Part shown: positions 1,490 through 27,599 of the stretch, one piece after another
How positions within the stretch are numbered: the stretch's first letter is position 1
How the letters are laid out: each line of letters opens with the position of its first letter
Assembly (NCBI RefSeq): GCF_918797505.1
Contig: NC_092796.1
Span: 59,302,851-59,366,850, forward strand
Length of the DNA: 64,000 bases
Source: Bemisia tabaci
Taxonomy: Eukaryota; Arthropoda; Insecta; Hemiptera; Aleyrodidae
Reading direction: 5' to 3'
Made by a program: the position numbers and the translations under genes
Notes under the pieces: model-generated
Database searches by the model: none
What the model was told of the DNA's origin: nothing
Seen by the model: only the letters and a program-made list of their open reading frames with translations

Positions 1490-1961
1490 TTTTGGCTCAG
1501 GGATGTAACAAGGGATCATGAAAAAGGCAGAATCACGATAGCGCCTTCATTTTCACGTGATACTCTCCGCCTCATTCCGAAGTTAGTTTAGTTGCCCAGC
1601 CGATCGAAACCTAACTAAAGCAACAGAAATGAATATTTTAGTTTAAGAGATCTCAAAAAAGAGAGGGCCACGATTTCGCCTTCGATTCGCGCGATACTCT
1701 ACGCCTCGCTTTGAAGTTAGTTTAGTTGTCTTGTCACCTAACTTCAGCAACTGAATGTTTCAGTTTGAGGGATCCATAGGAAAAGACGGTCACGAATTCC
1801 CCTTCATTTTTACGTGATACTCTACGCCTCATTACGAATTTAGTACAATTCCACAGTCGATCCAAATATAACTTGGGTAACCAGGATGAATATTTCAGTC
1901 CCAGGGGTCTTATGAAAGACACTATCGCTATTTCACCTACGTTGTCTTGTGATACACTGGG

Positions 1962-1993
<32 letters not shown>

Positions 1994-2230
1994 ACATTGG
2001 GTCTAGAGTCCAGACTCTTGAAAACATTGACAAGAAAAAATACTCTTGATTCTATCAGATCTTTGCTTAAATCAAAAGGAAATCCACTCAAATTAAGAGG
2101 TTTGGTCCTTGATTTAAGCAAAAATCCGATTGAATCAAGAGTATTTTTTCTTGTCAATGTTTTCAAGAGTCTGGACTCTAGATCCAATGTGTTTTTTTTC
2201 CAGTATACTCTACGCTTCGCCCCAGAGAGC
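1490..2230. repeat. Diverged tandem repeat, about 120-138 bp unit
   Basis: Units begin near 1531, 1669, 1791 and 1923. Each contains a variant of CACGATTTCGCCTTC, then GATACTCTACGCCTC, then AGTTTAGT, then a late GATCTCA/GGATCCAT part. A partial unit may precede 1531. The fourth unit is split by a family A MITE exactly inside GATACTCTACG. Unit identity is low, so the array is old. Confidence 0.6.
1955..2205 (-). mobile_element. Family A MITE, copy 1
   Basis: CACTGG...CCAGTA ends flanked by TA on both sides (1953-1954 and 2206-2207). The arms carry TCTAGAGTCCAGACTCTT and its reverse complement. The centre orientation is opposite to the copy at 13775. Removing the element and one TA restores GATACTCTACG, which matches the surrounding tandem unit. 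A poly-A run of about 30 makes it longer than usual. Confidence 0.85.
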
Positions 2231-2639
2231 TAGCACTCAAGCCTGTTACTTGCATAATACATTGCATTGTAATAAAACATTGTAAGCATCGTAAGATAAC
2301 TGTTTTTGCCAACTTTTATTTGTCATAAGCTCCATAAAACTCAACGGAATCCGTCACATTGAGAAATTAAGCCTTGTCGTTCCAAAATCTAAAGAATGAA
2401 ATTCATTTGTTTCAGATCGCGTCGCGCACTGATTTCATTACTCTTCTATCAACATATGGACCTGCTGTCATAACTTCAGATTGATTTGGTGAGTGTCTCA
2501 TCTATTTTACCATTCAAGGAATAATTAAATATTTTATTTTTAAGAAAGCAATGTCAAATAGAATGATAGATCATTCCGTGAATAGATAATTCGCTGGTGT
2601 TCTGAAATTTGATGAATTTCGTGTTTAAGTGGAAACCAT
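2231..2639. other. No recognised feature
   Basis: AT-rich unique-looking sequence without a credible frame. Confidence 0.45.
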
Positions 2640-2742
2640 TGAGTGAACTGAACACGAGGATACTCTTCGTTTCTTTATTTATAACAATTATTATTGGAGG
2701 AGAAATGACTAAATAACTGAATCTGCTACAATAAATGTGTTT
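2640..2742 (+). repeat. Dispersed repeat X, copy 1
   Basis: Shares an ordered series of words (ACACGAGGATA, TTTCT, ACAATTATTATTGGAG, GCTACAATAAATGTGTTT) with the tandemly duplicated sequence at 42990-43182. No termini could be set for this diverged copy. Confidence 0.45.
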
Positions 2743-2909
2743 CAATGCGCAATGAAACGAGCAACTATTCGAACTCCGGAGTGGGTATGTGGTATCACGC
2801 GAAATTGAAGGAAAATCTTAGCTTTTCGCCTATCCCAAGTTACTGACTTCTATGAATTTCATGCTCGCATCGGTACAAAAATTGCATGTATTCCGCGATT
2901 TTTTGGTGA

Positions 2910-3170
2910 AAATTGGATTGCATTTTGCAAAAAGGAACCAAGAGTATTCCGATGTCGCTAAGATTGTGCAACTTGTTTCTTGTTGCAAATAAAAACTGAT
3001 CATCTATATGTAAACAGGTTTTATCTCCACCCCCGAGCCCCGATAAACTATGAATTCAAGACAAAAATTACTTTTGTGAATTTAATTTTTGTCGAAGAAT
3101 GCAAGTTGCACAATCCTAGCAACACTGGAATTCTCTTGGTTTCTTTTTTTGCAAAATGCAATCCAATTGT
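2910..3170. repeat. Inverted repeat with about 60-bp arms
   Basis: TTGGATTGCATTTTGCAAAA at the left mirrors TTTTGCAAAATGCAATCCAA at the right. The arms continue through AACCAAGAG/CTCTTGGTT and GATTGTGCAACTTG/CAAGTTGCACAATC. A central part of about 125 bp is not paired. The ends look related to family D, so this is probably an expanded relative of it. Confidence 0.6.
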
Positions 3171-4654
3171 GTGGTGGTATGCGTACTTTATCAACCGCTG
3201 AAAAATTCGCAAATTTATCGTGAAATTGAGGTGAATAACGAGAAATTTTTAACGATTTTACAAAACCGCTGAAATAATCATGTTGCCGCGATACGGCGGT
3301 GATTATCAATACGTGATGGACTACACGACGAATGTTTACACCCCTTTTTAGGGTCGTAGAATCCAAATGTAAAGTTTGCTGCCTCGTAGCTATATGGTGC
3401 TTTCCGCGCAATTGGAAAAAACGTTGACAAATTTCAGTTATTTCAATTTCTGGTTTATAACTTTATATATGATCTAAAGATCTAAAACTCGTTTGCACGA
3501 CGTGAAAAATTGTAAAATTCCAAGACATTGACTCATGCATGTTCTATTTTAACATCAAAATCGACAGAGCCTCCACCACTTGCGCCGGGGCGTTTTTCTG
3601 GCTCGCGAAGAGCACTGCACCCTCAGCGGAGGTTATGCAGCGCGGCCGTCCAGCATGCCGTTTCTGGCATTTTATTTTACTCGTACCCATTTTATGGCCC
3701 TTCCAGCATGTCTTTTGGTTATTTTGTCCTTCGTGGCTCCTCTAATGTCACTTATGTCATCGACAGTAGCACGCAAGTCTTGAAGGCTCCTTACTGATAC
3801 ATGTGTCTGGAGGACTTGGGATTTAGCGCCTATGTCCAGTAATCATAGGGTTGTCGTATCGGTACGCGAGACAACTCAACTCACATTGCTCATATCATTG
3901 CTTCAGAAGTAAAAATTATTATTCAGCCACTTTTTGTCTCTGTGAAAGTGTTCCTTTCAGTTTTTTCACTCTAAATAGGTACACGAAAACAACGTGTTTC
4001 ATTCGTCGGAGGTCATTTTTAAATTCTCAGTTCGGGAAGTTAAACTAAAAGGTGTTCAGTCTTGTGATGCGCTGCAAGTCAAAAGCGGAAAAACGATAAA
4101 ATTTCATTTTTGCAAGGACTAAAAACAATTGAAGTACACGAGCGGTGTCATAAAACTGCGGAACGGCCAAATCCATAAAAGCCTATTCACGTGTGACACC
4201 ACCATCCGCGCATCCAGTGATTTTGCGCCCACAGAATGAGCAACGTTTCGAGCATAAAGCTGCTGGTTTCTTGTTCGGGGAGAAAATCGGAGGAAAACTT
4301 TTCAGCGCTTGAAATGAACTTGCTCGTGGCAATATGAAAGTTACCTCTCGCAGAAAAGCTTTCAACGTCGCGCTGATAATTGGTTGCGAAATAGAGTTTT
4401 AGACAACTTGAAAGGTCGCAATGATTCTGAAAGTGTCGCAATTAAACAACGGTTTGATCTAATGGAGGATCTGCTCGCGTAAATATTTCCGTCTCATAAC
4501 AATCTTTTTAATGATTTAACTATGGTCCTTTATGTTTAAAAGAGAGCAATTAGGAGGAAATAATGGATTTTCAAAGAGAGTCAGCAAATTAGTCTGGTAA
4601 TGGGCACGGTAAAGTAAAAGAACGGACTATTTGTTGAAATGAGTGGTTCTGATA
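3171..4654. other. No recognised feature
   Basis: No repeat pair or gene-like frame was found. The short overlapping frames at 3528-3797 span a GC-richer patch but match no family I know. Confidence 0.45.
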
Positions 4655-11543: not shown

Positions 11544-12229
11544 GGTTTGTCACTATAGGTACTTTCAAGAACCGCTCATTTTTGCTATAGCTCTCTAAAA
11601 ATTCGGAAATCTTTCACTCTGCAATCTTCGTAATAGTAATTCACAGAGCACACAGTGAACACACGAGAAAAACCAACAATGCAAAACCCTTGGACAATCC
11701 TAAAAACCGCAAATACAGAGGTTTGTAATGTCTCGGTCAATACGTAACTTCAATATAAGCATTGAAATTGAATTGATTTCAAGAGATAGTAATTGGATTC
11801 GTAATTTAAGAACTTCAAGCTCCTTCTTTCCCCCCTAACACCCCCCCCCCCCCGTCCCGCACCGCCGCATTCATCCCATTTTATTCCTCCTACTTCTCCA
11901 CCCCTTTTTCCTGTAACAATCTTGCCCTCCCACAGTTGCATCCTAGTCTGCGCTGGTGATAATTAATAATGAATTAACAAAAATAAAAAAAAAAGCGAGG
12001 GGGAAAAAAAGACCGACAAGTTTTTACCACCTAACCACTTGTCGCGTCGGGAGTGTAATGAAATCAGGAGGCTGGAAGAGGACGAATGGGGTTTTATGTC
12101 GCCGGACTTAATTGGATTTACAGGGAGCTCGCGACACCTTTTAAAGTCCTCGAATGCACTTGACTTGAATTTGCCAGCCCTAGAGCATTCTTGAATTTCG
12201 GGAAATCGCCCGAACGTACACTCGCAAGT
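11544..12229. other. No recognised feature
   Basis: Contains a C run near 11836 and A-rich 11983-12010. No gene-like frame. Confidence 0.45.
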
Positions 12230-12376
12230 CAGTGGCGAGGCGTGAATGCCCCATTTGAAGCCATGGTAAAGAATCGAATATTTAGGTGTGTGTTTCGTTT
12301 GCCATGTTAATCGATCCTTTTCCATCGGTTTGAATGGCAGATCAATCTATATATCGCGAAGCACGCCCCGTCACTG
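12230..12376 (-). mobile_element. Family B hAT-type MITE, copy 2 (diverged)
   Basis: CAGTGGCGAGGCGTGAATG at the left and CCCCGTCACTG at the right. The central hairpin has decayed (GGTGTGTGTTTCGTTTGCC). At 147 bp it is about 18 bp shorter than the family. Confidence 0.7.
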
Positions 12377-14185: not shown

Positions 14186-15475
14186 CTAGAAGTTTCCTCT
14201 CCCTTCTCCTTCCTTCACAAATAACTTATCTTTTTGGTTAGTTGGTCGGCACCGCAAAATAGTTTGCTCGACTTTTATTCAGGAACTAAGATACCTCAAC
14301 AGGGTCCAGACATCCAATATCATCGGAGGTATCGTCCTTTGAAAAAAAAAAAAAAAAAAAAAAAACAAGCGGGAAAGTTCTAATACTGTCGTATTAGAAA
14401 AGCGCTCAGGTGTTAGTAAATGTATTTAATGAAGAAAGGACGTATAAACTCCGTCGACTTGGCTGGGAAATGGAAATAAAACATCAGCTGATAGCAAACA
14501 AAGGTTACCAAGGAAACCGTAAACGCGTATTTTTGTTTCCCGAAAATGAGCTCACCGTTGAGCTAATCAGGCGCGTTTTTTTTAGGCATCATTTGAGTTC
14601 AACGATCAATTTCGATAAGAATTACTCTACCACTAAGAAATTTTCTTATAGACAAACGATCGAAACTACCTTCGCATTACGTTAAAAGCATAAAATACAG
14701 TTTTCACAGCTTTATTTATTTTAAAAATGGACCCCCCCCCCCCCCCAAAAAAAAAAGCCGATACACATCTGGATGAAAATAACTCGAATTTGCTAAATTT
14801 CAGCCGTTGGGCGATGACTGTTGACTTCCACATTCAGCTGCTAAATTCAGCGTCTGATTGCGGCAATTTTGATCTGATCAAGCAGGGATGAGTGTTGTTA
14901 AGTATGAAGAAAAAATTGTAGCTTTATATCTCCCAACCGTTTAAAAATTACAAGCCAAAACCTATTTTTTCTGTGACTCCTACCAGTGACGTGCTTTGCG
15001 ATATGTCACCTTTCTCCTCATTTTTCTTCTCTCTCCTCCTTCATTTTCCTTACCTTCTTTTCTTCTCTCTTTTTTTCTGCTCCTCTCTCTCTACTACTTT
15101 ATCTTTCTCTTCCTCCTCTTCTCCAACAGATTAAATCTCGATCAATTGATAAATTATTTCTACGCAAAATCAATGGCAAATCTTTGGACGCTCGTCACTA
15201 CAAAACTTCTAAATTTATATTTGAGAAAGGAGCATTTTAGCCCCAAAATCAAAATCGTATTGATGAAAAAGCTAAGATGCTCTAATTCATGTGTTCTGAT
15301 ATTTTATTTGTTAATCATCTGTGTTTTTTCTAGGCATATAATTATTTGTCTCCTGAAATATATTATAGAAATCAATAAGATGAATGAATAAGTTATAGAA
15401 ATCGTGAGAATGGTCAAAAACTATAAGTCAAAGATGTATTCATCTGAAAAAGGTGCTACCAGGGGTCATGAAACA
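14186..15475. other. No recognised feature
   Basis: Includes a poly-A run at 14341-14364, a C run near 14730 and a pyrimidine-rich stretch at 15030-15125. The 91-residue frame at 14410-14685 resembles nothing I know. Confidence 0.4.
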
Positions 15476-15531
15476 TCAAATAGACTGAAGTATCGACCCC
15501 TGTGTATTACTACCAAAACTAGCACCAATTT

Positions 15532-15603
15532 TGTCGGCGTTTAGCCGAGGGTAAAACCCTCGTTTCCACCGTCCACCACGAGGAGGAACCGACATCAGAC
15601 GGC
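15532..15603 (-). ncRNA. HDV-like self-cleaving ribozyme A (predicted)
   Basis: On the minus strand the 72-nt sequence folds into the nested double pseudoknot of hepatitis-delta-like ribozymes. P1 is 7 bp (15597-15603 with 15568-15574) and starts with a G-U pair at the expected cleavage site. P2 is 6 bp (15589-15594 with 15532-15537). P3 is weak (15585-15587 with 15575-15577, two C-G pairs). Loop 3 is UCCUCGU, and its CC can form P1.1 with GG at 15566-15567. P4 is a perfect 7-bp hairpin (15546-15552 with 15556-15562). J4/2 begins GCUAA, giving a candidate catalytic C at 15544. Cleavage would fall just 5' of the base complementary to 15603. The weak P3 is its main defect. Activity is inferred. 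Confidence 0.75.
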
Positions 15604-16729
15604 ACGCTTCCACCGTCCAACTTACAACTCCCATGGCATACGTTAATTTGAAATTCAAAATTTTGAAGAAATTTTGAAAAAATGGAGAAGAAATTTTGAA
15701 AAATGGAGAAGAAATTTAAAAGACAAAGGCATGGGGCTCATGCCTTTGTTGTTAGTGAGATTTAATAAGGATAACCTTATTTTTAAAATTTTTTTTAAAT
15801 TTAATAATTATTGAAGATCTCATGCCATGAAGAGTTGGGTTGGCGTTCTGGGCGCACCCTCACTCACAACAGTGAACAATTCGCCAATGACCGAATGCAG
15901 GGAACTCCTCTACCACCGTGCGATCCAGCAGTGAGACAACAAACTCGTAGCTGGATACTCTCTACAGAGATAGAGATTGCTGAAACTTTGTCCGGCTTGT
16001 TCGGCCCAGGAGAACAGAATACCCTGAGCCACGAGGCCCCGGAACTCTCGTGAAGTATTCGGCTCGTCCTGCATCAAAACCTACTTCAATCTGCAACATC
16101 GCCTCAACCACCAGCCCGTTTGAGAGGTGTCCGACCCTCCGGTTCCGACTTTGCCTGGTCTAAAGTGTCCCGGGGGGGATGACGGCTTTAGACTTAATGC
16201 GCAAGCATCGGCAGATACCGGAGGTTGACCAGTACAGGATTGCCAGGCTTCGATCGGTCACCCCTGCAATTGGTCACTGACGAATCGCGCAAAGTCGGTC
16301 ACAGATCGGGATTTTCAGACCACTGTGTACCGGTTGATCCTTGCACCTCGCGGTTCAAGGATATGGCCTAACTACTATCAGTGGTCCTCTGAAGATCATC
16401 GTTCCCCTCATGTTCCTAAGGTTCCGCTTGATCTCTTCCGTAAGCCAGGGATATGGGCTAACAACCAAGGTAATAACGTACCAAGGTTCCGCTTGATCCA
16501 AGGCTGCAATGGATATGGCCTAACATCCAAGGTGTAAACAGCCCTGCTGCGCGCGAAGCAGGGCACCGAGGAAGTGGTTGATCCATGCCCGAGCGTATTA
16601 GGGATATGGGCTAACAACCAAGGTAATAACGTACCAAGGATGCGCTTGATCCTAAATTGCTCGTTACGATGTGTGAAGAGATATGGGCTAACAACCAGAG
16701 GCGAGGGAGGGTGCAGAATCACAACAGTT
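15604..16729 (-). mobile_element. Possible body of a non-coding retroelement
   Basis: This stretch lies directly downstream of ribozyme B on the minus strand and stops at ribozyme A. It holds a short tandem array (16359-16697), a moderately GC-rich middle with no domain-bearing frame, and a hairpin near 15725-15750 (AAAGGCATG... CATGCCTTT). HDV-like ribozymes usually mark the 5' end of non-LTR elements, so this may be such an element's untranslated body or a non-autonomous derivative. The 3' end is not defined. Confidence 0.35.
16359..16697. repeat. Interspersed ATATGGGCTAACAACC repeats
   Basis: Five copies of a word like GGATATGGGCTAACAACC start at about 16359, 16449, 16510, 16603 and 16679. 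Two are followed by AAGGTAATAACGTACCAAGG and a GCTTGATC word. Spacing alternates between about 60 and 90 bp, as in a degraded higher-order tandem array. They lie just downstream of ribozyme B in its reading direction. Confidence 0.65.
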
Positions 16730-16797
16730 TGCCGGCGTTTGGCACGGGTCAGAGACCCGCCCCAGGTCCACCACGAGGAGGCTCCGGCACCAGACCC
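16730..16797 (-). ncRNA. HDV-like self-cleaving ribozyme B (predicted)
   Basis: Minus-strand fold with the same plan as ribozyme A. P1 is 6 bp (16792-16797 with 16764-16769) with a terminal G-U pair. P2 is 6 bp (16784-16789 with 16730-16735). P3 is 3 bp (16780-16782 with 16770-16772). Loop 3 is again UCCUCGU, with GG at 16762-16763 available for P1.1. P4 is 6 bp with an AGA/UCU loop (16745-16750 with 16754-16759). J4/2 contains GCCAA with a candidate catalytic C at 16742. Compared with A, P1, P2 and P4 differ by compensating changes while core bases stay the same. P1 is 1 bp shorter than in HDV. Confidence 0.78.
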
Positions 16798-16825
16798 TTT
16801 TCTCTCTCTTCTCACGTTTCCTCTC

Positions 16826-17114
16826 GCTTTTCCTCTCGATTTTCTTCTCACTTTTCTTCTCGCTTTTCCTCTTGCTTTCCTTCTCGCTTTCCTTCTCGCT
16901 TTCCTTCTCGCTTTCCTTCTCGCTTTCCTTCTCGCTTTCCTTCTCGCTTTCCTTCTCGCTTTCCTTCTCGCTTTCCTTCTCGCTTTCCTTCTCAATTTCC
17001 TTCTCGCTTTCCTTCTCAATTTCCTTCTCAATTTCCTTCTCGCTTTCCTTCTCGCTTTCCTTCTCAATTTCCTTCTCGCTTTCCTTCTCAATTTCCTTCT
17101 CAATTTCCCTCTCA
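16826..17114. repeat. 12-bp minisatellite, CTTTCCTTCTCG unit
   Basis: About two dozen near-identical copies of CTTTCCTTCTCG, with an AATTTCCTTCTC variant concentrated in the right half. The pure pyrimidine strand gives long frames in several phases (for example SRFP or RRKA repeats), which are artefacts of a period divisible by three. It lies immediately upstream of ribozyme B on the minus strand. Confidence 0.9.
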
Positions 17115-17594
17115 CTGTTTTACTGTGTGCTTTCACTGTTTTATTCTCTTTTATGTTCTCTCTATTCTTCTCTTCTTCTTCTCCCATGTCTCTTCTTTTC
17201 TCTCCTCTCTTCTCTCTTTTCTTCCTGTTCTTTCTCTTATCTTCTTCCTCCTCTTTCTATTCTTCTCCCTCTCCTCAAACTTTGATTTTACCCTATACGA
17301 AGAGGTACTTTCACGAATGAGCCGTAAATAGTAGTTTTTTTTATCGTAGAATATAGTCTATTTGATCCCCAGGGAATCTAGTAGCCAGTAATAGACTTCT
17401 GACAGTGCTTCAGAAGACAAACGCATACTCCGTCACCGAGACAGAGAATTGACGAAGGAAGTGATTCGGTCACTTCATTCGAAGTTAGGAAAAGTCTCAA
17501 AATGGTGAGCAATAGAAAAATGTTGAACATCTTATTTATAATCAAGAATCTCATTCCTAGACAAAAGTCCTGAGGACAGAAGAACTCGCGATCC
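17115..17594. other. Pyrimidine-rich sequence, then nothing recognised
   Basis: The CT-rich composition continues without a fixed period to about 17275. The rest is unique-looking. Confidence 0.45.
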
Positions 17595-17759
17595 CAGTGG
17601 CGTGGCGTGAATTGCGATATATCGATTGTTATGCCATTTAAATCCATGGTAAAAAATCGATTATTAAGGTGTTCGCTACGAACACCCTGTTTATCGATCC
17701 TTTTCCATAGGTTTAAATGGCCGATAAATCGATATATCGCAAAGCACGCCACGCCACTG
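17595..17759 (-). mobile_element. Family B hAT-type MITE, copy 3
   Basis: CAGTGGCGTGGCGTGAATTG at the left and CACGCCACGCCACTG at the right, 165 bp, with the central GGTGTTCGCTACGAACACC hairpin. Flanks CGCGATCC and CACGAGCC match at 6 of 8 positions, suggesting a decayed 8-bp duplication. Confidence 0.85.
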
Positions 17760-18269
17760 CACGAGCCGTCCATTTTTCATCATTTATTCCGGTAGAAATA
17801 ACGTTGAATCAATAAGAAACTCAATGAAACACAACTACACCGAAACACACTCGTTCATCATATGTATGAACTGATATTAATCAAAATTAATCATTTATTG
17901 TCTCAAACTGTGTTTTTTGCTAAGTCCTGACGACGGCTGAGGCCGAAAAGCTTCGACTATTAAGTTCCTGAATTTCAAGTTAACGTGAGTTAACAGTTTA
18001 TTTTAACCCATAGCACTGGCTACCCAACAAACCAAAAATTACACAAAAACTACTACCATAATGTTGTAAATCAACACTTTCAATACAAATTGTCATTGAA
18101 AGAGCAAAATTGACCAAGACGGATTATAAATATTAGTCGTAAAACAGTAACCTCAGGCGGAATTTTTTTCGTTTTGCAAAACAACCTCTAGTATAGCAAT
18201 AATGAAAGTTTTGGTGGTTCACTTGCCTCGGCACAGTAAAACTAAACTTAAGAGAGCTCATCGTTTCCC
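17760..18269. other. No recognised feature
   Basis: AT-rich unique-looking sequence. Confidence 0.45.
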
Positions 18270-18547
18270 GCATGAAAGAACGTAACTTCATTTCAATGTT
18301 GCCAAATGTCCCCTCGCAAATTGCATATTAAGTAGGAGGATCTTGAACTTTCCTAACTGGAAATTTCATTGATAATTTTCCCCGAGATTTCATGCAAAAT
18401 TAAAATAAAAATTACACAGGCACATTTTCATTAATTTGTTTTACAAAGTTGTGCCTGAAAATTGCACAGGCATAACTTTGTAAAATAAATTAATTGTTTG
18501 AGTCAATTTGGTGACCTTGGAATGGAGTTACATTCCTTCGTACGGGA
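18270..18547 (+). repeat. Family F repeat, copy 1
   Basis: Left end with GAAAGAACGTAAC and AATGTTGCCAAAT, right end with CCTTGGAATGGAGTTACATT, arranged as imperfect mirror images around an AT-rich middle. The middle has its own small palindrome (CACAGGCA... TGCCTG) near 18416-18475. Related copies lie at 22198, 36410, 52640 and 56461. Confidence 0.6.
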
Positions 18548-18608
18548 GACAAGTTTTACATTTAAACGTCTGGTCAGTTCTACTTATATGTGACAGACGA
18601 GGGTTAAA

Positions 18609-18747
18609 TGGACTACATTTTGCAATTAGGAACTAAAATTTCTGGCTCATCCTTAAAAACACTTTTGTGCATCGGGAAACTAATGGCTCATAAGTTATTT
18701 CTAAACTGAGTCAGAAATTATAGTTCCCAATTGCAAAATGTGGTCCA
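18609..18747. mobile_element. Family D palindromic MITE, copy 4
   Basis: TGGACTACATTTTGCAATTA at the left and its reverse complement (with TGTGGTCCA) at the right, 139 bp, with internal TTTCTGGCTCAT and mirrored TGAGTCAGAAAT. This is one of the best-preserved copies. The stretch from 18748 to 19042 holds nothing I recognise. Confidence 0.85.
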
Positions 18748-19042
18748 AATGAGTCTGGAGGCTATTGGAGCGGAGGAAAACTTATTATTCATGTGGAAGC
18801 TACCTTTCATAACAATATGCCGGGCCCCTTTTACTAGTGACCAGATCTGTAAGAGGAGACCTATCTTTCTGGGGACAAAATTCCTTTACTCAGGAAATTT
18901 GATCCTAAATCTCAAAAACTGTCGTGAAGCTTGAAGACAAAAATTCCTAGGTTGTAGAAAAATGTTGTTCATGTGTTCGCAAAAAGTTAAGAACAATTTT
19001 CTCCCGGAGGAGAAGCTCTTTTTACACAGATCCACACACAAA

Positions 19043-19184
19043 TGGACTGCATTTTGCAATTGAGCACTAAAATTTGTGTCTCAAGTTTAGAAACAACGTA
19101 AGTACCCATAGTATCATATGCACATAAGTGTTTTTATAGATGAGCCAGAAATTGTAGCTCCGAATTGCAAAATTTAGTTCAAAT
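19043..19184. mobile_element. Family D palindromic MITE, copy 5
   Basis: TGGACTGCATTTTGCAATTG at the left, and GAATTGCAAAATTTAGTTCA at the right, somewhat diverged. The CAGAAATTGTAG word matches the other copies. Confidence 0.75.
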
Positions 19185-19407
19185 TAAGTAACGTTGACTC
19201 AGACCGCTCTCGGCGCTCTCTGCTCAATCTTCACCAGATTGAAGGCAAGAAGGAAGTAAAGCAGTCGATAACCTAACAAGGTTTAACAGTTAATTTCCAC
19301 CACGACGCACTTTTAGACCCCGGCTCGTCAAAAATTCTTCCAAAGACACGAGGCACTCTGGAAATTCATGAATAATCATCCAAAATTGTTACATATTGTT
19401 ACTTTGC

Positions 19408-20644
19408 TCTATGATGACCCATGTCTCCAGTAAAAATCTTAGCTTGAGGATACGTCTGGTTTTAGAAATACAGCGTTGACAAGTTTCCATATTTAAGCTT
19501 TAAAGATTATCGTATTATCAAGTATCTTACTTTCTGTAAACAACTGTCATTGGATGTTTCATGATATTTTAAGACATTTTATCAACAGTCAGTGTACATT
19601 TTTCTAAAAAAATACGTTAATAATAAATAATTTTTCTACGTTAATGCTGTTAATTCTGTTGATACAACGTTGCAAACTTGACATCACAGACCTATAAAAA
19701 TGCTCATTTTGTTCCGTTTTTTGAATTAAAAAACGAACTTATTGACCACCTAAAGGTATGATAATGTGGTTTAGCTGAAATTCTATGATAAGATTAGTCT
19801 TGTGTAAAAGTTTTACCGCGAGTGTAAGTATAGATTTAACGATACAGCGTTGCAAAGTTTATGTATATAAGCTTTAAAAATGTTTTTATTTTTAAGTTCA
19901 GTGTTTGTTTGTTTGTTTTTTTTGTTTTTTTTTGTTTTTTTTTTTTTTTTTTTTTTTATGAAATAAACCATTAACGTTATCTGCAGATGTAAGATTGATT
20001 TGTAGTGATACAGCGTTGCCAAGCTTACAATTTTGAACTCAACGAAATATGATTTTTTTTAAATTTTTTTTTTCCAGTTTAAGATAAAATCAATGGGTAT
20101 CATCCCTCATATCAATCCAAAATATCAAGGTCTGATGTCTGTTCCAAGTGACAATTGGTTTTTGCAATAATACTTTCGCCAATTTTATTCACAATTCTCT
20201 CCAAGCAATAAATAATAGACGATTTTAAAATAAAGATGCTTCCAGTAGTTATTTGATTTTGCTTATTTTTTTATTTACATTGACATTTTTTTTTCTTTCA
20301 TTTTTATATGACTTTCTACCGTACATTATTTTTCATTTTTTTTTATTTTTGTATTTTTTATAGTTTTTTATCTCCTTCCTTCAAAATATTTTATTCATGT
20401 GATGCTTCAGTATCAGTCCTGTCTTGCCTTCAAATCTATAGAAAACGCCTCAGCATGATGCCAATTTTAAACTTTCACCCTCCAAAAGTCATTTTTAAAT
20501 AATTTTAAAATTCTCTCTTAAGGAGGCGTCTGGGTTTTTTATACATTAACGCAACAGTGATTTAAATATTCTATTTAGGTTTTAAATTATATTTTATTGT
20601 TTTGTTGGTGTATTTATTATTTTTCGTTCATTTAATTTACTTTG

Positions 20645-20681
<37 letters not shown>

Positions 20682-21832
20682 TTCTTTAATATTTTCAAAA
20701 TCTTCCATTCTTACGTTCAACATACTCAGTTTTTTAAGGCATAATGAATGTATCGTCTGTATCAAGATTTATTTCTACTTAAAAAAACCCAAACGCCTCC
20801 ATATTCTATGTTAGTTTCTTCATTACACCTAAAAAAGGTTGAATTTGCAACTAAGTCTAGGCAGAATATTTCAGATCTTGAAAGCAACGCTGATGCTGAA
20901 TCATCCATTGTATTCCAAAAATCCTCTGGAATTACATTTTAAAGTAAAATAACTATTGGAAGTATCCTTATTTTTAACTAATTTTATACAATCGAATGTT
21001 AAAAGAAAAGCAGATAAAATTTGCAACGATGTTATTTTAATGCAATTGTCACCCAGGATCAACATAAAGCCTCCACATTTCGCTTCACACTATTAACCAT
21101 TAACTCATATTGTATCTTGTCTCCAATACAATAACAAGAAAAAGTAGACATTTTCATAGATGAAAGATGTAAACTTTGCAACGCTGTATTGCCCAAAATT
21201 ATCGTATACTGATTAAATCTATGCTATACGTCTAAACTTTGCAACGCTGCATTGCCTAAAATTATCGTATACTGATATAAATTTTACTATGAGTCTGCGA
21301 GTATCTCTAATTGTATATTTTATGTCTCAAATACTGCTACAATATACAAAACTATAAAAAATGGGTATTTTTAAAGGGCAAGAATGTAATTTTTGCAACG
21401 TTGTACTGCTATTAACGGCTCATCCACAATTTGAAACTTTTACTACGGATTTTCTTATAATTTTTCAGTTACGCGTCATGTTTACTTGAAACTTACATTA
21501 CTTGTTACTTACATTACTTTGAAATTGGCTTTTGGAAGAAATTCTTCAAAAATATGAAGATTTTTAAGACTCAAACATGCAAACTTTGCAACGCTGTAGC
21601 TCCAAAACCAATGGCGTGGCGTGAATTGCGATATATCGATTGTCATGCCATTTAAACCTATGAAAAAGGATCGATAGACAGGGTGTTCGCAGCGAACACC
21701 TTAATAATCGATTCTTTACCATAGCTTTAAATGGCATGAGAATCGATACATCGCAATTCACGCCACGCCACTGTCCAAAACCAAACGTATCCTCAAGCTA
21801 AAATTTTTACCGGAGGCTTGTCTCATCATAAG
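19408..21832. mobile_element. 2.4 kb AT-rich foldback element with motif array
   Basis: GTCTCCAGTAAAAATCTTAG and GAGGATACGTCTGGTTTTAG near the left end have mirror images at the right end (CTAAAATTTTTACCGGAG, CCAAAACCAAACGTATCCTC). Inside, the motif ATACAGCGTTGCAAAGTTT recurs in forward orientation at about 19468, 19661, 19841 and 20007, and reversed at about 21019, 21169, 21231, 21388 and 21578. Spacing on the left is about 165-195 bp. The centre is AT-rich with poly-T at 19917-19957 and 20648-20681. No credible frame. A family B MITE is nested at 21609. The exact outer ends are uncertain. Confidence 0.65.
21609..21773 (+). mobile_element. Family B hAT-type MITE, copy 4
   Basis: CAATGGCGTGGCGTGAATTG at the left and CACGCCACGCCACTG at the right, 165 bp, flanked by a perfect 8-bp duplication TCCAAAAC (21601-21608 and 21774-21781). 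Without the insert the right arm of the surrounding foldback element reads continuously. The ends and the duplication length fit hAT transposons. No coding capacity. Confidence 0.9.
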
Positions 21833-21880
21833 GTTTCATTTCGGTCACGTACGAATGAAATCCCCGGGTTTCAAAAAAGG

Positions 21881-22000
21881 TCGCTCCTCTGACATTAGGA
21901 CGTATCTCACTTTTCACATGAACCGCAGAAAGCATGGATTTGAATGTGACCCAGGGCTCACGAGGAAATTGAGATTCGCCCTTTCGTCAGAGGAGCGACG
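21881..22000. mobile_element. Family E palindromic MITE, copy 1
   Basis: TCGCTCCTCTGACATTAGGA at the left and CCTTTCGTCAGAGGAGCGAC at the right, about 120 bp. A near twin lies at 22735-22857. Confidence 0.75.
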
Positions 22001-22050
22001 AAACGGGGCCACTCATTGGGAGGCTTTTTAATCTATTTTCCTCCCTCAAT

Positions 22051-22190
22051 TGGACTGCATTTTGCAATTTGGAACTATAAATTCTGGCCCGGTTTAAAAA
22101 AAACGCATGTGCCATTAGTATCCCTATGCACATAAGTGTTTTTTTCAGATGAGCCAGAATTTATAGTTCCAAATTGCAAAATGCAGTCCA
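22051..22190. mobile_element. Family D palindromic MITE, copy 6
   Basis: TGGACTGCATTTTGCAATTT and its exact mirror AAATTGCAAAATGCAGTCCA, 140 bp, with GAACTATAAATTCTGGC and GCCAGAATTTATAGTTC inside. Very well-preserved termini suggest recent activity. Confidence 0.85.
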
Positions 22191-22197
22191 ATTCGTC

Positions 22198-22572
22198 GTT
22201 ACCTCCCACGAAAGAACATAACTACATTTGGATTACATTTTGCAATAAGGAACCACTATTTCTGACTCTTCCATAAAACCACCGTTCTGCACAGGGAAAC
22301 CAATGGCATATACGTTGTTTCTAAAATGAGCCAGAAATAGTGGTTCCTTTTTGCAAAATGTGGTCCATTTCATTGTTGCCAGATTTCGCCTCGTAAATTT
22401 GAATTTGTAAAGGAAAATGTTAGGTATTAATTGTACATTTCACTGATTTTTCCGCTGATCTCATGAAAAACGAAAATAAATTTTGGATAAAGATTTCGCT
22501 TTCTCGTGTTTGTGAAAAATTGAATTCTTTGAATCAATTTGACAACCTTGGAATGGAGTTACGTTTCTTCGT
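22198..22572 (+). repeat. Family F repeat, copy 2, with family D insert
   Basis: CACGAAAGAACATAACTACA at the left and ACCTTGGAATGGAGTTACGT at the right match the copy at 18270. A family D element (22229-22367) interrupts the left arm between ACTACATT and TTCATTGTTGCC, where copy 1 reads straight through. Confidence 0.65.
22229..22367. mobile_element. Family D palindromic MITE, copy 7 (nested in F)
   Basis: TGGATTACATTTTGCAATAA at the left and TTTGCAAAATGTGGTCCA at the right. It lies inside a family F repeat, and comparison with 18270-18547 suggests a target duplication of about 3 bp (TTT). Confidence 0.8.
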
Positions 22573-22734
22573 CCGGGAAATGACAAAAAATGAAGCTGAA
22601 TCCTGTCGTAGCGAATTCAGTGAATAGTTTATTCTGCAGAATCTTGGAAAAATAAGACAGTTTCAAGGCATTATGTTCCGTAGTTCTGCAGTATTACAGA
22701 AACAGAACATCAGGAAAAACTAAGCACCGTCAAA

Positions 22735-22857
22735 TCGTCGCTCCTCTGACGTAAGGGCGTATCTAGATTTTTGCATGAGCCTTAGAAAGCATAGAGTTAT
22801 ACGGAGCACAGGGGTCACGTAGAAATCAAGTTACGCCCTTACGTCAGAGGAGCGACG
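22735..22857. mobile_element. Family E palindromic MITE, copy 2
   Basis: TCGTCGCTCCTCTGACGTAA at the left, TTACGTCAGAGGAGCGACGA at the right: a perfect 20-bp terminal mirror. The middle is unpaired. The word CTTCTCCTCTGACGTAA at about 49446 may be a fragment of the same family. Confidence 0.8.
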
Positions 22858-22930
22858 AAATGTAGTTAAGTTGATTCTACCTAAAATCGCCCGAATGATG
22901 ACAGCGGCGATGATCAGCGTTGAGGAAGAA

Positions 22931-23180
22931 TGAGGGGCTTGTAGGACAAAGCGCGTAAGTGCAGTTTTTGCTACCTCGAGAAATATGTGTTTGAAGTTTT
23001 GAAATTACATGGATCCTTATGGCGGAAAGAAAGTTCAAACTGACTTTTTGAAGCTTAAAAATTGAAATTTGAGAGGGAATTTTTCACAAAACATGCACTT
23101 AGACTAGTTTTACTTGAAATCATTAAAATCTCAACTTTTTCAAAAACTGCACTTATGCGCCTTGTCCTCCAAGCCCCTCA
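22931..23180 (+). mobile_element. Family Y palindromic element, intact copy
   Basis: TGAGGGGCTTGTAGGACAAA at the left and TTGTCCTCCAAGCCCCTCA at the right, continuing through TAAGTGCAGTTTTT and AAAAACTGCACTTA. Length 250 bp. It serves as the empty-site reference for the interrupted copy at 13700-14185. Confidence 0.8.
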
Positions 23181-23241
23181 AATTTTTTAGCAGCCCATTT
23201 CAAAAATTGAAATTATTGACAGTAACCGATTCATTAGAAGT

Positions 23242-23668
23242 TGAGGTGATTCAATGAACGCCATATTTTGTGCCAGAACGACATGCGAAATATCGCGTCG
23301 ATTGGTTTCATTTTTTCAGCTACTCGTCATTTTTCTCGAATTTTGAGATCGCAATTCTGTTGTCAGGAGACTAAAGAATTCACCTACCAAATTTTGACAA
23401 ACAAATTCATCGTAATGAAGTCGTGGGTTTTTTTTATGAGACAAAATATTCCATTCGAATGCAGTATTTTTCCTCTATTTTCCTCACGCCTTTAATACTT
23501 TGAATTTGTTCATCAAAATTGGTAAGTGAATTATTTAGTCTCCTGACAATAGAATTGCGATCTCAAAATTCGAGAAAAATGACGAGTCGCCGGAAAAATG
23601 GAACTAATCGATGCTATATATCGCATGCCGTTCTGTCACAAAATATGGCGTTCATCGAATCACCTTAA
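23242..23668. mobile_element. Family O inverted-repeat element, copy 1
   Basis: Arms of about 190 bp: TGAGGTGATTCAATGAACGC at the left, GCGTTCATCGAATCACCTTA at the right, continuing through TTGAGATCGCAATTCTGTTG and its mirror. The ends are TTGA and TTAA, which would fit a TTAA target with GGTGATTC TIRs. No frame of interest. Confidence 0.75.
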
Positions 23669-24009
23669 TTTTCGAAATAGGAGGAAGCTTGAGAGATCTT
23701 ACCGTGAAGAAGCGATGATCTGCAAGGTCAGGAACAGCTCTGATGCGGAGGGTGAAGATTTCCATCCTCGTTCATCCCCTTCTCGAATGTTGGCTGCAAA
23801 GAAAAAAATTAAACCCTTTTAGAGATAAATTCAACGTAACGCATTGTTGCACATTGTCTAGTATATGGAACAGCTTAACAAATAAATTGAAATAATGTTG
23901 AAAAATAATGGAATAAAACTGCTTTTTTACCACAAAATTACAATATTCTCACATAATGTATTCAATAATAATCAATTTTCAACGATTAAAACATTTTCAT
24001 ATCGACGAC
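23669..24009. other. No recognised feature
   Basis: AT-rich spacer between the two family O copies. Confidence 0.45.
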
Positions 24010-24456
24010 TTAAGGAGATTTGATGGACGCCATATTTAGTGTCAGAACGGCATGCGATATATCGCATCCATTGGTTCCATTTTTTCAGCTACTCGTCATT
24101 CCTCTCCAATTTTGAGATCGCAATTCTGTTGTCAGGAGACTAAAGCACTCGCTTACCAATTTTAACAAAGAAATTCAACGTAATAAAGGCGTGGTTTTTT
24201 TAGAGAGAAAATATCGCATTCAAGTGCAGTTTCGATATCAGTATCGAATGCGATGTTTTCTCTCTAAAAAAACCACGCCTTTAGTACGTTGAATTTCTTT
24301 GTTAAAATTGGTAAGTGAGTGCTTTAGTCTCTGACAACAGAATCGCGATCTCAAAATTGGAGAAAAATGACGAGTAGCTGAAAAAATGGAACCAATTGAT
24401 GCGATATATCGCATGCCGTTCTGACACAAAGTATCGCGTCCATCGAATCACCTTAA
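24010..24456. mobile_element. Family O inverted-repeat element, copy 2
   Basis: TTAAGGAGATTTGATGGACG at the left and CGTCCATCGAATCACCTTAA at the right, 447 bp, TTAA at both ends. The arms are almost perfect mirror images (about 220 bp) meeting near 24232. The copy is more symmetrical than the one at 23242. Confidence 0.8.
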
Positions 24457-24982
24457 GTGTAGAAACACGCGTTTCCGTCTGCTACTCAACAGATTTTCTG
24501 TCATACTTCATTTTTTCTCGGGGGAACTGGTCTACCTAATTTCTTTAAAACTTCCGTGATTTTTTTTTCAATGTTTGCAGAATACTTTGTATAAATTTCA
24601 AGCTATGAAGTTTGCTTGTTTCTCTTCGAAAAAATAAAATAAAGGTGGAAATTTTATGACACCACAATAGAAATGCATGATTTTCCACTTTGGCCATCGA
24701 TTTATGAAGAAGTTAGGTACTTCGCAAATGCAAAAAATTGCAACACATTTCAATACGCTGAATACCTCGATAACTCCACTGTTGTGAAAAAAATCTCGAG
24801 AAAATCAAAAGATTATCGCCCACAGGGATTCTCAAATTATATATCGATGGCCGAAGTGCGAAACCACCTATCTCCGTCTGCGACGTCCCGGACCTCCTGT
24901 TACACTTTATTTTTTCTTAGTAAAACTAGTCAACTTATTCTTGAAAACTACCTCGATTTTTCCTCTCTTTTAGCAAAATATT
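24457..24982. other. No recognised feature
   Basis: The 112-residue frame beginning at 24673 has no recognisable domain and runs into the following transposon. Confidence 0.45.
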
Positions 24983-25212
24983 CACGGGAAAAAAAAACAC
25001 ATTGGATCTAGAGTCCAGACTCTTAAAAAAACATCAACAAGAAAAAGTACTCTTGATTCATTCAGAATCTAACTTAAATTAAAAACCAAGCCTCTTAATT
25101 TAAGCGGATTTCGTTTTGATTCAAGCAAAAATCCGATTGAATCAAGAGTATTTTTTCTTGTCAATGTTTTCAAGAGTCTGGACTCTAGATCCAGTGTGGT
25201 TTTTTTTCAGTG
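24983..25212 (+). mobile_element. Family A MITE, copy 3
   Basis: CACGGG...CAGTG with TT on both sides (24981-24982 and 25213-25214). The arms carry GATCTAGAGTCCAGACTCTT and its mirror, and the plus-type centre CCAAGCCTCTTAATTTAAGC. Confidence 0.85.
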
Positions 25213-26070
25213 TTCTGTAAAGATATCAAGCCCAAACAGTCGACTTAATTTTCCTCGAAAAAATAAAATGGTAGCATAAATTTTACTGGAAATACGTGGT
25301 TTCACACTTAAGTCACCGATATTAAATGTAACCACACTTCTCTCGTAAAAAAAAGAAGAAAAGAAAAAAAACATTTTGTTGATGACATCAAGCGACTTAC
25401 CGAATCAACGCTGAGGAATACACGTGAGCAAATTGACTTCCGAAACGATATCCTCAAATCAAATTTCACAGAAATATCACTGAAAAGACACTACCGAAAA
25501 TTCGCACGATGACAACCGACACGAGTGACAAATACTACTTCCACTTATTGTAAAACACGGCAAACTATCGCACTGGACGGAAAAAGTAGAGGCTTGCAGA
25601 CTAAAACTTTCGGCGGATAGAAAACTTGCGAAAAGTAAGGTTGTTCAACTATTCACTGCACCTTCTATATTCACGAAATAATTCACAGAGAAAAATTTTA
25701 ATAATAAAGTACTGAACACGAAACTAAATTACCGAACACGAAACTATAGTACCGAACACGAAACTACACTGATGGTAATGCACTTAAATAACACGACTAT
25801 CACACGCGGTCCCGAGATGAATATATTTCCGATAAAATATACTTCCGATTTGATTATCCTCTACGCTCAAGCTCAACCCCTACGGCTGCGCGACTTCGAC
25901 TGACCAAAGTTCCAGAAGTTCCGAGCCCTCGAGGTCTCCAAAGTTTTCCTTGTTGTTCTCGAAAACAAAAGAGTGGCTTCGATTTCCAAAATATCCCTAC
26001 TTTTCGGGTTTCCCAGGTGAAAGGTCAGTGCAAGCTCACAAAAGAAAATGTCTTCATTGAACTGAAAACT
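25213..26070. other. No recognised gene; one short tandem repeat
   Basis: At 25711-25767 the phrase GAACACGAAACTA occurs three times with a period of about 20 bp. The rest is unique-looking. Confidence 0.5.
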
Positions 26071-26200
26071 AATTGGATGTATTTCTATCAAACGGAACTA
26101 TGTGCGTTAAGACATTAGCCCTTAGACCCATACGAATATGTCCATAACAGGGCTCACGTCATAATGCACGTAGTTCCGTTTGATAGAAATACGTCCAATT
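26071..26200. mobile_element. Family H palindromic MITE
   Basis: AATTGGATGTATTTCTATCA at the left and TGATAGAAATACGTCCAATT at the right, 130 bp, with arms continuing through AACGGAACTA and TAGTTCCGTT. A half fragment with the shared word ACAGGGCTCACG lies at about 27305-27341. Confidence 0.75.
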
Positions 26201-26583
26201 ATTACAATAATTAATGAGGGTACCTGGATTTCCCGGATTAATTCATCTCTCACTTTTCACAACTTCCCTTTTTTTGTTGAAAAGTAGTGCGGGTTCGTCC
26301 ATGAATTACAGAACCCATTTTTCCCGACCTTTGACCTCTCCTTCTCCCTTTGTCCTAGATGTCACTTACCTTCACACCCCCCCCCCCCCCGAAAATTTTT
26401 TTCATTACAAGCGTGCCTCCCTCTTTTGCGTAGGTGTGGGTCGTCACGAACCCTTGCCACGGGTGCATCACATATGAATTCAAGTGTTTAAATGACTCAA
26501 AAACAACATAAATCACATAGGAAAAATCTAGAATCCACTCCTCCTTCAAGGCATTTCTTGATTGTAATCGGCTCGGCTTGAAT
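26201..26583. other. No recognised feature
   Basis: Contains a C run near 26379. Confidence 0.45.
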
Positions 26584-26774
26584 TCTGCCGTGCTAAGGAA
26601 GAACGCTGCACGAAAATTCGAGAGTTGCCAAGTTTCCCTTGATAAAGCATGTATTTTTTACGACATTTATGCATATTTTTCCTTTAAAATTTCAGATATT
26701 TACATTAAATTGCGTGCAAAATCGTCTGAAAATTTCGGGGGAAAATATTCACAATTTTCCCGGTAAATGGTTCA
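26584..26774. mobile_element. Family J element, truncated copy 3
   Basis: TGCCGTGCTAAGGAAGAACG and TTGCCAAGTTTCCC match the left half of family J. The right half is missing because element K starts at 26775. Confidence 0.6.
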
Positions 26775-27174
26775 GTTGCGTTGGTCACAAAATCGTGGTT
26801 TTATGCTTGAATTCTTGTGGTCAGCTAAAAATAATAAGATCCGTCCAAACAGCAACTTTCTACGTTCAATATTAACAGAGATATCGCCCTTTGAAAAGAC
26901 AGGTTTTTGATGTCATCCATCGCGGTGGTGACACCCTTGGTTTTTTCACCTTGCTTTCATCCAAGTATCACGCTGAGTAACCAGTGCATCACTGACTGAT
27001 AAAAGCGAGGTGGAAGAAACCAAGGGTGTCACCACCGCGGTGGATGACGTCAAAATCCGGCTTTTTAAAAGGCGATATCTCGGCTAATATTGAACGTAGA
27101 GAGTTTGGATGGTATTATTTTTAGCTGATCTACAAGAATCAAGCATCGAAACACGATTCTGTGACCATCGCAAC
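26775..27174. mobile_element. 400-bp foldback element K
   Basis: Arms of about 170 bp: GTTGCGTTGGTCACAAAATC at the left, GATTCTGTGACCATCGCAAC at the right, continuing through ACGTTCAATATTA/TAATATTGAACGT and CCACCGCGGTGGATGA. The unpaired centre is about 40 bp. No second copy in the window. Confidence 0.75.
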
Positions 27175-27290
27175 TCTGCCGTGCTTAGGAAGAACGCCGT
27201 ATGAACATTCAGGCGTTGCCAAATTTCTTACGGCAAATCACCACTTTTCTGGAAAATTTGTAAAGATTTTCCTTCCGATTTTTCCGATAA
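27175..27290. mobile_element. Family J element, truncated copy 4
   Basis: CTGCCGTGCTTAGGAAGAAC and ATGAACATTCAGGCGTTGCC match the left half of family J. It follows element K directly and has the same orientation as the fragment before K. Confidence 0.6.
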
Positions 27291-27599
27291 TTTTGTTCTC
27301 AACTCCATAAGTGTATGCGTATTACAGGGCTCACGGCATAAATTCAGGGTTCCCAGCGATCTGGAAAACCTGGAAAAGTTAGGGAAAAAAATGGCCTGGA
27401 AAACATGGAAAAGTCAGGGAATTTGCTCCAAAAGTCTGGAATTTTTTCAAGTACTGAGAACTAAAAATTTGATAAGTAAACAAATAAAAATAAAATAATT
27501 AAAATTGAAATTGCAATTCCTCCGTTGTATTTTGAATTTTCCGCCAACTCATCCTCTTTATCGGCATTCGTAACGAATCGGAACTACTCGGAAGTGTTC

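What the first reader, a model, noticed from the sequence alone, without database searches (positions are those of the whole stretch)
16730..16797. Second HDV-like ribozyme with compensating changes relative to the first
This copy keeps loop 3, the GG for P1.1, the AAACG of J4/2 and the candidate catalytic C, but helices P1, P2 and P4 have different bases that still pair. Examples: P2 UGUCGG/CCGACA becomes UGCCGG/CCGGCA, and P4 CGAGGGU becomes CGGGUC with a matching partner. Covariation between two divergent copies 1.2 kb apart is strong in-sequence evidence for a selected RNA structure.
Basis: seen in the sequence. Interest (0 to 1): 0.92.

Follow-up and report, generated by a model that had tools for sequence, protein, structure and literature searches.

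The report
Twin delta-like ribozymes bounding noncoding RNA
This stretch is one end of a repeated, non-protein-coding DNA unit in a large genome whose two ends each carry a different hepatitis-delta-type self-cutting RNA, so a defined RNA of about 1.2 kilobases may be cut out at about 110 places, a layout that is known from hammerhead ribozymes.

Summary
Window 16797-16730 (minus strand) folds as an HDV-like double pseudoknot, as does copy 1 (15603-15532). The two differ by compensated changes in P1, P2 and P4; a weak spot is the outer P3 pair (U.U in copy 1). In the window's own genome the loop-3 16-mer occurs 224 times (reversed control 1), and 98 of the 100 places listed form same-strand pairs 971-3,475 nt apart. 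In all 31 loci read (one is the window; about 112 exist) the upstream member is ribozyme A (this finding) and the downstream one the different ribozyme B. The block between them is noncoding, about 98% identical even between loci whose upstream flanks do not align, starts exactly at A's predicted cleavage site and ends 3 nt past B. SNPs and a length allele are shared across flank families, so the block is exchanged or homogenised. Best reading: a dispersed, retrozyme-like unit whose two HDV-like ribozymes release a 1.0-1.3 kb structured RNA. Cleavage, circularity and mobility are inferred, not shown; a competing hairpin at B's cleavage site in 23 of 31 copies could silence B. New variant of a known kind.

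The parts
16730..16797 (-). Ribozyme A (the finding). P1 16797-16792 with 16769-16764; P2 16789-16784 with 16735-16730; P4 16759-16754 with 16750-16745; candidate catalytic C 16742; predicted cleavage just 5' of 16797
   Evidence: present in 31 of 31 loci read
15532..15603 (-). P1 15603-15597 with 15574-15568; P2 15594-15589 with 15537-15532; P4 15562-15556 with 15552-15546; candidate catalytic C 15544
   Evidence: 31 of 31 loci carry it, 30 of 31 fit the descriptor
15604..16797 (-). 1,194-nt RNA that cleavage at A and B would release: ribozyme A, GC-rich core, AT-rich spacer; noncoding
   Evidence: fold -429.5 kcal/mol, z -7.3 against 30 dinucleotide shuffles; codon-position test negative
15604..15627 (-). 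Sequence just upstream of B that can pair with the P1 5' strand of B (GGACGG with CCGUCU), a possible attenuator over the cleavage site
   Evidence: GGACG upstream of B in 26 of 31 copies; hairpin of -9.0 to -11.0 kcal/mol in 23 of them, -11.0 in the window copy
15452..15526 (-). Tail hairpin downstream of B (GGTGCTA...TAGCACC, with CAGGGGTC/GACCCCTG inside); diverged but alignable in three t2 tails tested
   Evidence: sequences; three tails of family t2 align here at 73-78%
16798..17270 (-). Purine-rich minisatellite (12-nt unit) directly upstream of A; right limit by eye; other purine-rich arrays stand there in other loci
   Evidence: the 200 nt upstream of A are 77-92% purine in 31 of 31 loci
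15007..27307 (-). About 12.3-kb repeat (family t1) that carries the block near its 3' end
   Evidence: aligns in blocks at 95-98% with L062+L031, the only other copy read in full; both start and end at the same base; 10 of 31 loci reach the same 3' end

Best explanation
The finding is the 5' ribozyme of a dispersed twin-ribozyme block: HDV-like ribozyme A, about 0.95 kb of GC-rich noncoding RNA, a variable AT-rich spacer, then the distinct HDV-like ribozyme B. When a transcript runs through the locus, A cuts just before its own first G and sheds the purine-rich leader; B cuts just before its own first G and sheds the downstream RNA. This leaves an RNA of 970-1,300 nt (26 of 31 copies; longer in 5) with a 5'-OH and a 2',3'-cyclic phosphate, ends that a cellular ligase could join into a circle, as for hammerhead retrozymes. 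The block is embedded in larger repeats (family t1 is 12.3 kb) and is exchanged or homogenised among its loci, either through its RNA or by ectopic gene conversion. Shown: the folds on paper, the A-core-B coupling and order in the loci read, the block limits at the ribozyme limits, and the cross-family exchange. Inferred: transcription, cleavage, circularity, mobility.
For: Genome counts, up to one mismatch: 16-mer 224, ribozyme-B 20-mer 112, core 20-mer 109; reversed controls 1, 0 and 0. Among the 100 places listed, 49 same-strand pairs and 2 singles. On C1-C8, 80 of 83 listed exact core sites have a same-strand B downstream at 447-778 nt, clustering near 454, 672 and 774; 1 opposite-strand neighbour. 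Order A then B in 31 of 31 loci. Positions +1 to +20 from A's predicted cleavage site are identical in 31 of 31 loci, while -1 to -4 agree in 29, 19, 18 and 18; downstream, identity runs 3 nt past the last P2 base of B and then drops. Core identity between families t1 and t2 is 0.979 (216 of 216 pairs) while their upstream flanks align in 0 of 216 pairs. In 27 copies: one fixed difference, 17 shared polymorphisms, 184 of 496 four-gamete violations, Rm 13. The short allele, with the same breakpoints, is in t1 (L045, L058, L059) and t2 (L033, L054). In L046 B carries a P4 insert that can pair with itself.
Against: No biochemical or RNA evidence. A hairpin covering B's cleavage site is predicted in 23 of 31 copies. 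The nested lowest-energy fold of the 1,194-nt RNA pairs part of A's loop 3 with the 3' end of the RNA and does not show the ribozyme; the program cannot draw pseudoknots. A and B differ, so the locus is not a tandem array of one circle as in known retrozymes. The core shows no convincing covariation: 7 pairs with double changes against 34 with broken cells, on an alignment with a misplaced gap. Within each ribozyme type the selection signal is weak: of 11 substitution events counted by hand, 2 (both in L036) break a pair or key base where 49-59% would by chance, P 0.009-0.035; if one P1.1 pair is read in the register it is 3 of 11, P 0.04-0.12. No target-site duplication and no solitary block were identified.
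Confidence: 0.55

Rival explanations
1. 5'-end processing as in R2, RTE or L1Tc-type non-LTR elements: A, or both A and B in series, only free the 5' end of a longer retroelement RNA from its host transcript; the tandem is a 5'-UTR duplication and the released 1.2-kb piece is a by-product.
For: HDV-like ribozymes are known at such 5' ends (start of the abstract of PMC3774820 in a search listing; passages of PMC4035085, which also reports two in-tandem Pr77 hallmarks in SIDER2). The conserved block starts exactly at the predicted A cleavage site.
Against: A motif scan found no reverse-transcriptase motif in the six frames of 31 loci or the window, and one LINE-like zinc-knuckle fragment 2.1 kb past B in L034 only. 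The block lies near the 3' end of the 12.3-kb t1 repeat. Solo ribozymes, expected from truncated LINE copies, are rare: 2 of 100 listed places, and one of these has a partner with one mismatch.
Confidence: 0.2
2. A host noncoding-RNA gene family: the block is a functional RNA gene with self-processed ends, kept similar by purifying selection and gene conversion, and spread by segmental duplication.
For: Within t2 the core is 98.1% identical (66 of 66 pairs) but the upstream flank 88.4% (61 of 66 pairs aligned) and the downstream flank 85.6% (55 of 66). Some copies are neighbours, 22-69 kb apart (list).
Against: About 112 copies, on contigs C1 to C10 at least and on both strands; a large carrier with the same two ends in two loci looks like a transposed repeat; no independent covariation in the core.
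Confidence: 0.15
3. The ribozymes are fossil: fold-competent but not cleaving, carried along in a repeat homogenised by gene conversion alone.
For: A and B are nearly invariant because the copies are recent or homogenised, so conservation alone is weak evidence of function; the competing hairpin at B; the weak within-type selection signal.
Against: A and B keep distinct but paired helices after diverging; the block limits fall on ribozyme limits.
Confidence: 0.1

Closest known systems
Retrozymes (hammerhead retroelements of plants and animals; PMC7229834 and PMC7761336, passages seen)
   Same: Small self-cleaving ribozymes in direct orientation bound a noncoding, highly structured unit of some hundred nt to about 1 kb; many non-autonomous copies
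   Different: Ribozymes are HDV-like, not hammerhead; the two differ from each other and keep their order; unit mostly 1.0-1.3 kb; carried inside larger repeats; no circRNA data here
HDV-like ribozymes at the 5' ends of non-LTR retrotransposons (R2, L1Tc/ingi, SIDER; PMC3774820 listing only, PMC4035085 passages)
   Same: Same ribozyme fold; conserved block begins at the predicted cleavage site; SIDER2 also has two in-tandem Pr77 hallmarks
   Different: No reverse-transcriptase motif nearby; here the two ribozymes flank about 1.2 kb and lie near the 3' end of the carrier
Rfam RF02682 HDV-F-prausnitzii
   Same: Copy 1 aligns end to end; 7-nt L3 and a P3 of type nCC/GGU
   Different: 30.3 bits, below the gathering score of 44; copy 2 not listed
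Deltaviruses (described in PMC7761336, passages)
   Same: HDV ribozyme fold; a structured RNA of kilobase size
   Different: Genomic DNA repeat, both ribozymes on one strand, no conserved long open frame, predicted fold branched rather than rod-like by eye

Membership tests
HDV-like ribozyme | Nested double pseudoknot of P1, P2, P3, P1.1 and P4, cleavage at the first nucleotide of P1 | tested here: met
   Fold only, not cleavage. Descriptor: 2 hits in the window against 2 in 392 shuffled windows; 31/31 A and 30/31 B copies, 0 of 20 viral contigs that share only the 16-mer. Outer P3 pair missing in B. Architecture as in PMC4908430, passages
HDV-like ribozyme | Catalytic C in J4/2 followed by N-A-A | tested here: met
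   GCCAAACG in the 31 A copies; GCUAAACG, GCUAAUCG or (L036) GCCAAACG in the 31 B copies. The role of the C is recalled knowledge
HDV-like ribozyme | Match to a curated Rfam HDV family at gathering score | tested here: not met
   0 matches in the window; copy 1 sub-threshold, copy 2 not listed
HDV-like ribozyme | Self-cleavage in vitro | not testable with these tools
   no assay possible
Retrozyme | Two direct-orientation self-cleaving ribozymes bounding a noncoding unit | tested here: met
   layout only; self-cleavage untested
Retrozyme | Ribozymes are hammerheads | tested here: not met
   both are HDV-like; no Rfam hammerhead match in the window at gathering score
Retrozyme | The ribozymes are copies of one repeat unit | tested here: not met
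   A and B are distinct in 31 of 31 loci
Retrozyme | Expressed as circular RNA | not testable with these tools
   no RNA data
Retrozyme | Target-site duplications | tested here: inconclusive
   Ends of the 12.3-kb carrier compared by eye in two copies, no duplication seen; no solitary block at hand
Non-LTR retrotransposon with 5' HDV ribozyme | Reverse transcriptase encoded downstream in full-length members | tested here: inconclusive
   No RT motif in 31 loci of 5.1-8.6 kb or the window; a motif scan, not a profile search; autonomous members may lie elsewhere

The most novel reading that the evidence does not exclude
A delta-type retrozyme: a genomic family in which two non-identical HDV-like ribozymes excise a 1.0-1.3 kb RNA that circularises and acts as the intermediate by which the block spreads and overwrites resident copies in unrelated carrier repeats, with an upstream hairpin switching the second ribozyme on or off.
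Probability: 0.25. Interest if true: 0.9.

Novelty: new variant of a known kind. Interest (0 to 1): 0.74.

Why it matters
In the passages I read, genome-encoded ribozyme-bounded RNA units carry hammerheads, while HDV-like ribozymes appear as 5'-end processors of LINEs and in deltavirus-like agents. A dispersed block with an HDV-like ribozyme at each end would join these two worlds, give a natural counterpart of the ribozyme-flanked RNA constructs used in the laboratory (recalled), and offer about 110 similar loci in which release, circularisation and RNA-mediated homogenisation can be tested directly. It also bears on where delta-like circular RNAs could come from.

Tried and rejected
Rejected: chance similarity; a protein-coding core (variable sites 15/16/15 by codon position in the sense frame, open in 9 of 27 copies; 9/8/9 and 11 of 27 in the antisense frame); an endogenised deltavirus (both ribozymes on one strand, branched fold by eye, no conserved long frame); a recent insertion of the block into a pre-existing T1 tail repeat, because no clear empty site turned up: of 25 tail matches on C1-C8, 22 lie within 800 nt of a listed same-strand B; the other three are a short match to part of the query (C7:43095268) and two places that could not be read (C3:6749011, C4:3382907), so empty sites are not excluded. 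One search scored 40 of 129 candidates. The model R1 was built but found no use: the genome search does not take it. Ribozyme A by its own 20-mer was never counted; about 112 is the difference. The 30 loci (L001-L030) were not analysed. No tool named the species; an early guess (whitefly) rests on nothing tested.

Full report
The sequence. On the minus strand, 16797-16730 reads as a compact HDV-like ribozyme (called A here) and 15603-15532 as a second one (B). Order of parts in A: P1 GGGUCU, J1/2 GG, P2 UGCCGG, P3/L3 (GCC UCCUCGU GGU), P1' GGACCU, GGGG with the P1.1 pairs, P4 CGGGUC-UCU-GACCCG, J4/2 UGCCAAACG, P2' CCGGCA. In B: P1 GCCGUCU, GA, P2 UGUCGG, P3/L3 (UCC UCCUCGU GGU), P1' GGACGGU, GG, AAA, P4 CGAGGGU-UUU-ACCCUCG, GCUAAACG, P2' CCGACA. 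B has one more P1 pair, and its outer P3 pair is U.U where A has G.U.

Is it more than chance? A descriptor of the helices plus the C-N-A-A of J4/2 hits only these two sites in the window, and 2 sites in 392 shuffled windows. It was written with the two copies in view, so two outside tests count for more. First, loci were then picked from the genome by the L3 16-mer alone; 31 of 31 A and 30 of 31 B copies pass the whole descriptor (one locus, L055, is the window itself), while 0 of 20 viral contigs that share the same 16-mer pass. Second, with the stated structure on 14 distinct variants, 97.2% of cells pair against 38-50% after sliding; six pairs (one in P1, one in P2, four in P4) change on both sides; covariation score 0.275, 0 of 500 shuffles as high; but the number of pairs with double change and the number of pair types do not exceed the shuffles. 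MAFFT placed the one-base P1 gap so that the next P1 pair could be counted in B only. All double changes belong to the A/B split. In one copy (L046) the B P4 carries an insert that can extend the helix. Rfam lists neither at gathering score; copy 1 is a sub-threshold match to the F. prausnitzii HDV family, copy 2 is not listed.

The genome. The window lies in a 610-Mb assembly of 151 contigs. The L3 16-mer with up to one mismatch occurs 224 times against 1 for the reversed pattern. Of the 100 places listed, all exact, 98 form 49 same-strand pairs 971-3,475 nt apart; of the two singles, one proved to have a partner with one mismatch (L047). Ribozyme B by its own 20-mer occurs 112 times, which leaves about 112 for A; a 20-mer from the core occurs 109 times. 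On C1-C8, 80 of 83 listed exact core sites have B downstream on the same strand, at distances that cluster near 454, 672 and 774; three do not; six of 87 B sites lack an exact core 20-mer.

The loci read. All 31 have A upstream and B downstream. A-to-B lengths are 970-978 (5 loci), 1,181-1,300 (21 loci), and 1,608-3,474 (5 loci). By the last bases of the left flank I sorted them into t1 (18 loci; L037, L046 and L060 placed by hand, L060 with a diverged flank), t2 (12) and L035 alone. All 31 have a purine-rich array just upstream (77-92% purine over 200 nt), of different repeat units. Family t1 is a repeat of about 12.3 kb (window 27307-15007, minus) that aligns in blocks at 95-98% with one other locus and begins and ends at the same base in both; self-comparison showed no long terminal or inverted terminal repeat, and by eye there is no target-site duplication. 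Ten of 31 loci reach the same 3' end.

The block. Counting from A's predicted cleavage site, positions +1 to +20 are identical in 31 of 31 loci, whereas -1 to -4 agree in 29, 19, 18 and 18. Positions 1-16 were not part of the search word. On the other side identity continues 3 nt beyond the last P2 base of B, then falls (there the last 8 bases of B served as anchor). In 29 loci (L050 and L056 left out) diversity per 20 nt is 0.00-0.08 in most of the interior, up to 0.35 in the AT-rich spacer, 0.08-0.09 in the first 30-40 nt past B, and about 0.3-0.6 beyond on both sides. Core identity is 98.7% within t1, 98.1% within t2 and 97.9% between. Upstream flanks, where they align, are 96.0% identical within t1 (136 of 153 pairs) and 88.4% within t2 (61 of 66), and align in 0 of 216 pairs between them; downstream flanks align in 65 of 153 t1 pairs (98.0%), 55 of 66 t2 pairs (85.6%) and 11 of 216 pairs between (96.2%). 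The last figure may reflect exchange too: L036 has a t2 left flank and a t1 tail. In the first 0.8 kb of 27 copies (L035, L046, L056 and L060 left out) there are 32 informative sites, one fixed t1/t2 difference against 17 shared polymorphisms; 184 of 496 site pairs fail the four-gamete test, and the minimum number of recombination events is 13. The short allele has the same breakpoints in t1 and t2. So the block bounded by the two ribozymes has been exchanged between carriers that otherwise differ. Selection alone would not share alleles in this way; gene conversion or RNA-mediated copying would. These data do not separate the two.

What the core is. It is not protein-coding. The unit folds more stably than shuffled sequence (z -7.3, 30 shuffles), with the two ends of the GC-rich part paired to each other (nt 74-94 with 934-952), but the predicted structure shows no convincing covariation among the copies, and this nested fold pairs part of A's loop 3 with the 3' end of the unit rather than showing the pseudoknotted ribozyme. 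No reverse-transcriptase motif was found in the 31 loci or the window. Downstream of B a hairpin (GGTGCTA...TAGCACC) is diverged but alignable in the t2 tails tested; by eye, 11 of 11 t2 loci with a t2 tail have AATAAA shortly after it, and the T1 tail does not at that place.

How it most likely works. Read-through transcription from the purine-rich side would let A remove the leader and B remove the trailer, leaving a 1.0-1.3 kb RNA with the end chemistry that small ribozymes produce (recalled knowledge), which in hammerhead retrozymes is followed by ligation into circles (PMC7229834 and PMC7761336, passages seen). Here none of this is measured. A warning sign: 26 of 31 copies carry GGACG just upstream of B, and in 23 of them a hairpin of -9.0 to -11.0 kcal/mol pairs it with the first strand of B's P1 across the cleavage site; the five short-allele copies lack GGACG there. 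B may therefore be slow, regulated, or silent in the long alleles.

Place among known things. As ribozymes, A and B meet the structural features of the HDV-like class (architecture as in PMC4908430, passages) but not the Rfam score. As a unit, the layout is that of retrozymes, with another ribozyme class and with two unlike ribozymes, so I do not file it as a retrozyme. In the paper searches that I made (open-access PMC library only) no listing that I saw reports a dispersed unit bounded by two HDV-like ribozymes; the nearest is SIDER2 with two in-tandem Pr77 hallmarks at one end (PMC4035085, passages).

Noticed in passing
window 17920-17975, + strand (antisense to the ribozymes): CUGACGA...GGCUGAGGCC...GAAA, which resembles the hammerhead core boxes as I recall them; no Rfam match at gathering score in the window. 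It lies inside the 12.3-kb carrier.
   Followed up: no
window 12211-12376, 17594-17759, 21608-21773 and other sites: A roughly 166-bp, near-palindromic repeat in many copies, MITE-like; other repeats of about 140, 220 and 450 bp also recur inside and around the carrier.
   Followed up: no
L036, about 440 nt upstream of A: The start of ribozyme A with its leader (GAGAGCGGAGGGTCTGGTGCCGGAGC) occurs a second time inside the purine-rich array, cut off there.
   Followed up: no
L034, about 2.1 kb downstream of B: A LINE-like C-terminal zinc-knuckle fragment (CECGSIGNLEHILFQC), the only retrotransposon-like coding trace found by the motif scan.
   Followed up: no
window 18426-18498, + strand: A long AT-rich imperfect hairpin that several miRNA models hit far below their gathering scores (mir-355 32.7 bits against 70.3); probably a repeat palindrome.
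   Followed up: no
G000 C5:48240795 and 48244190; C8:1301257 and 1303250: Pairs of B ribozymes 2.0-3.4 kb apart on one strand, perhaps tandem units.
   Followed up: no
G000 C5:52995371, C8:41097021, C8:45506840: Exact core words with no listed same-strand B within 3 kb downstream; not read.
   Followed up: no
L046, ribozyme B: The insert in P4 of B (GGGTACTTCAAGTACCC) can lengthen the helix by self-complementary sequence.
   Followed up: partly
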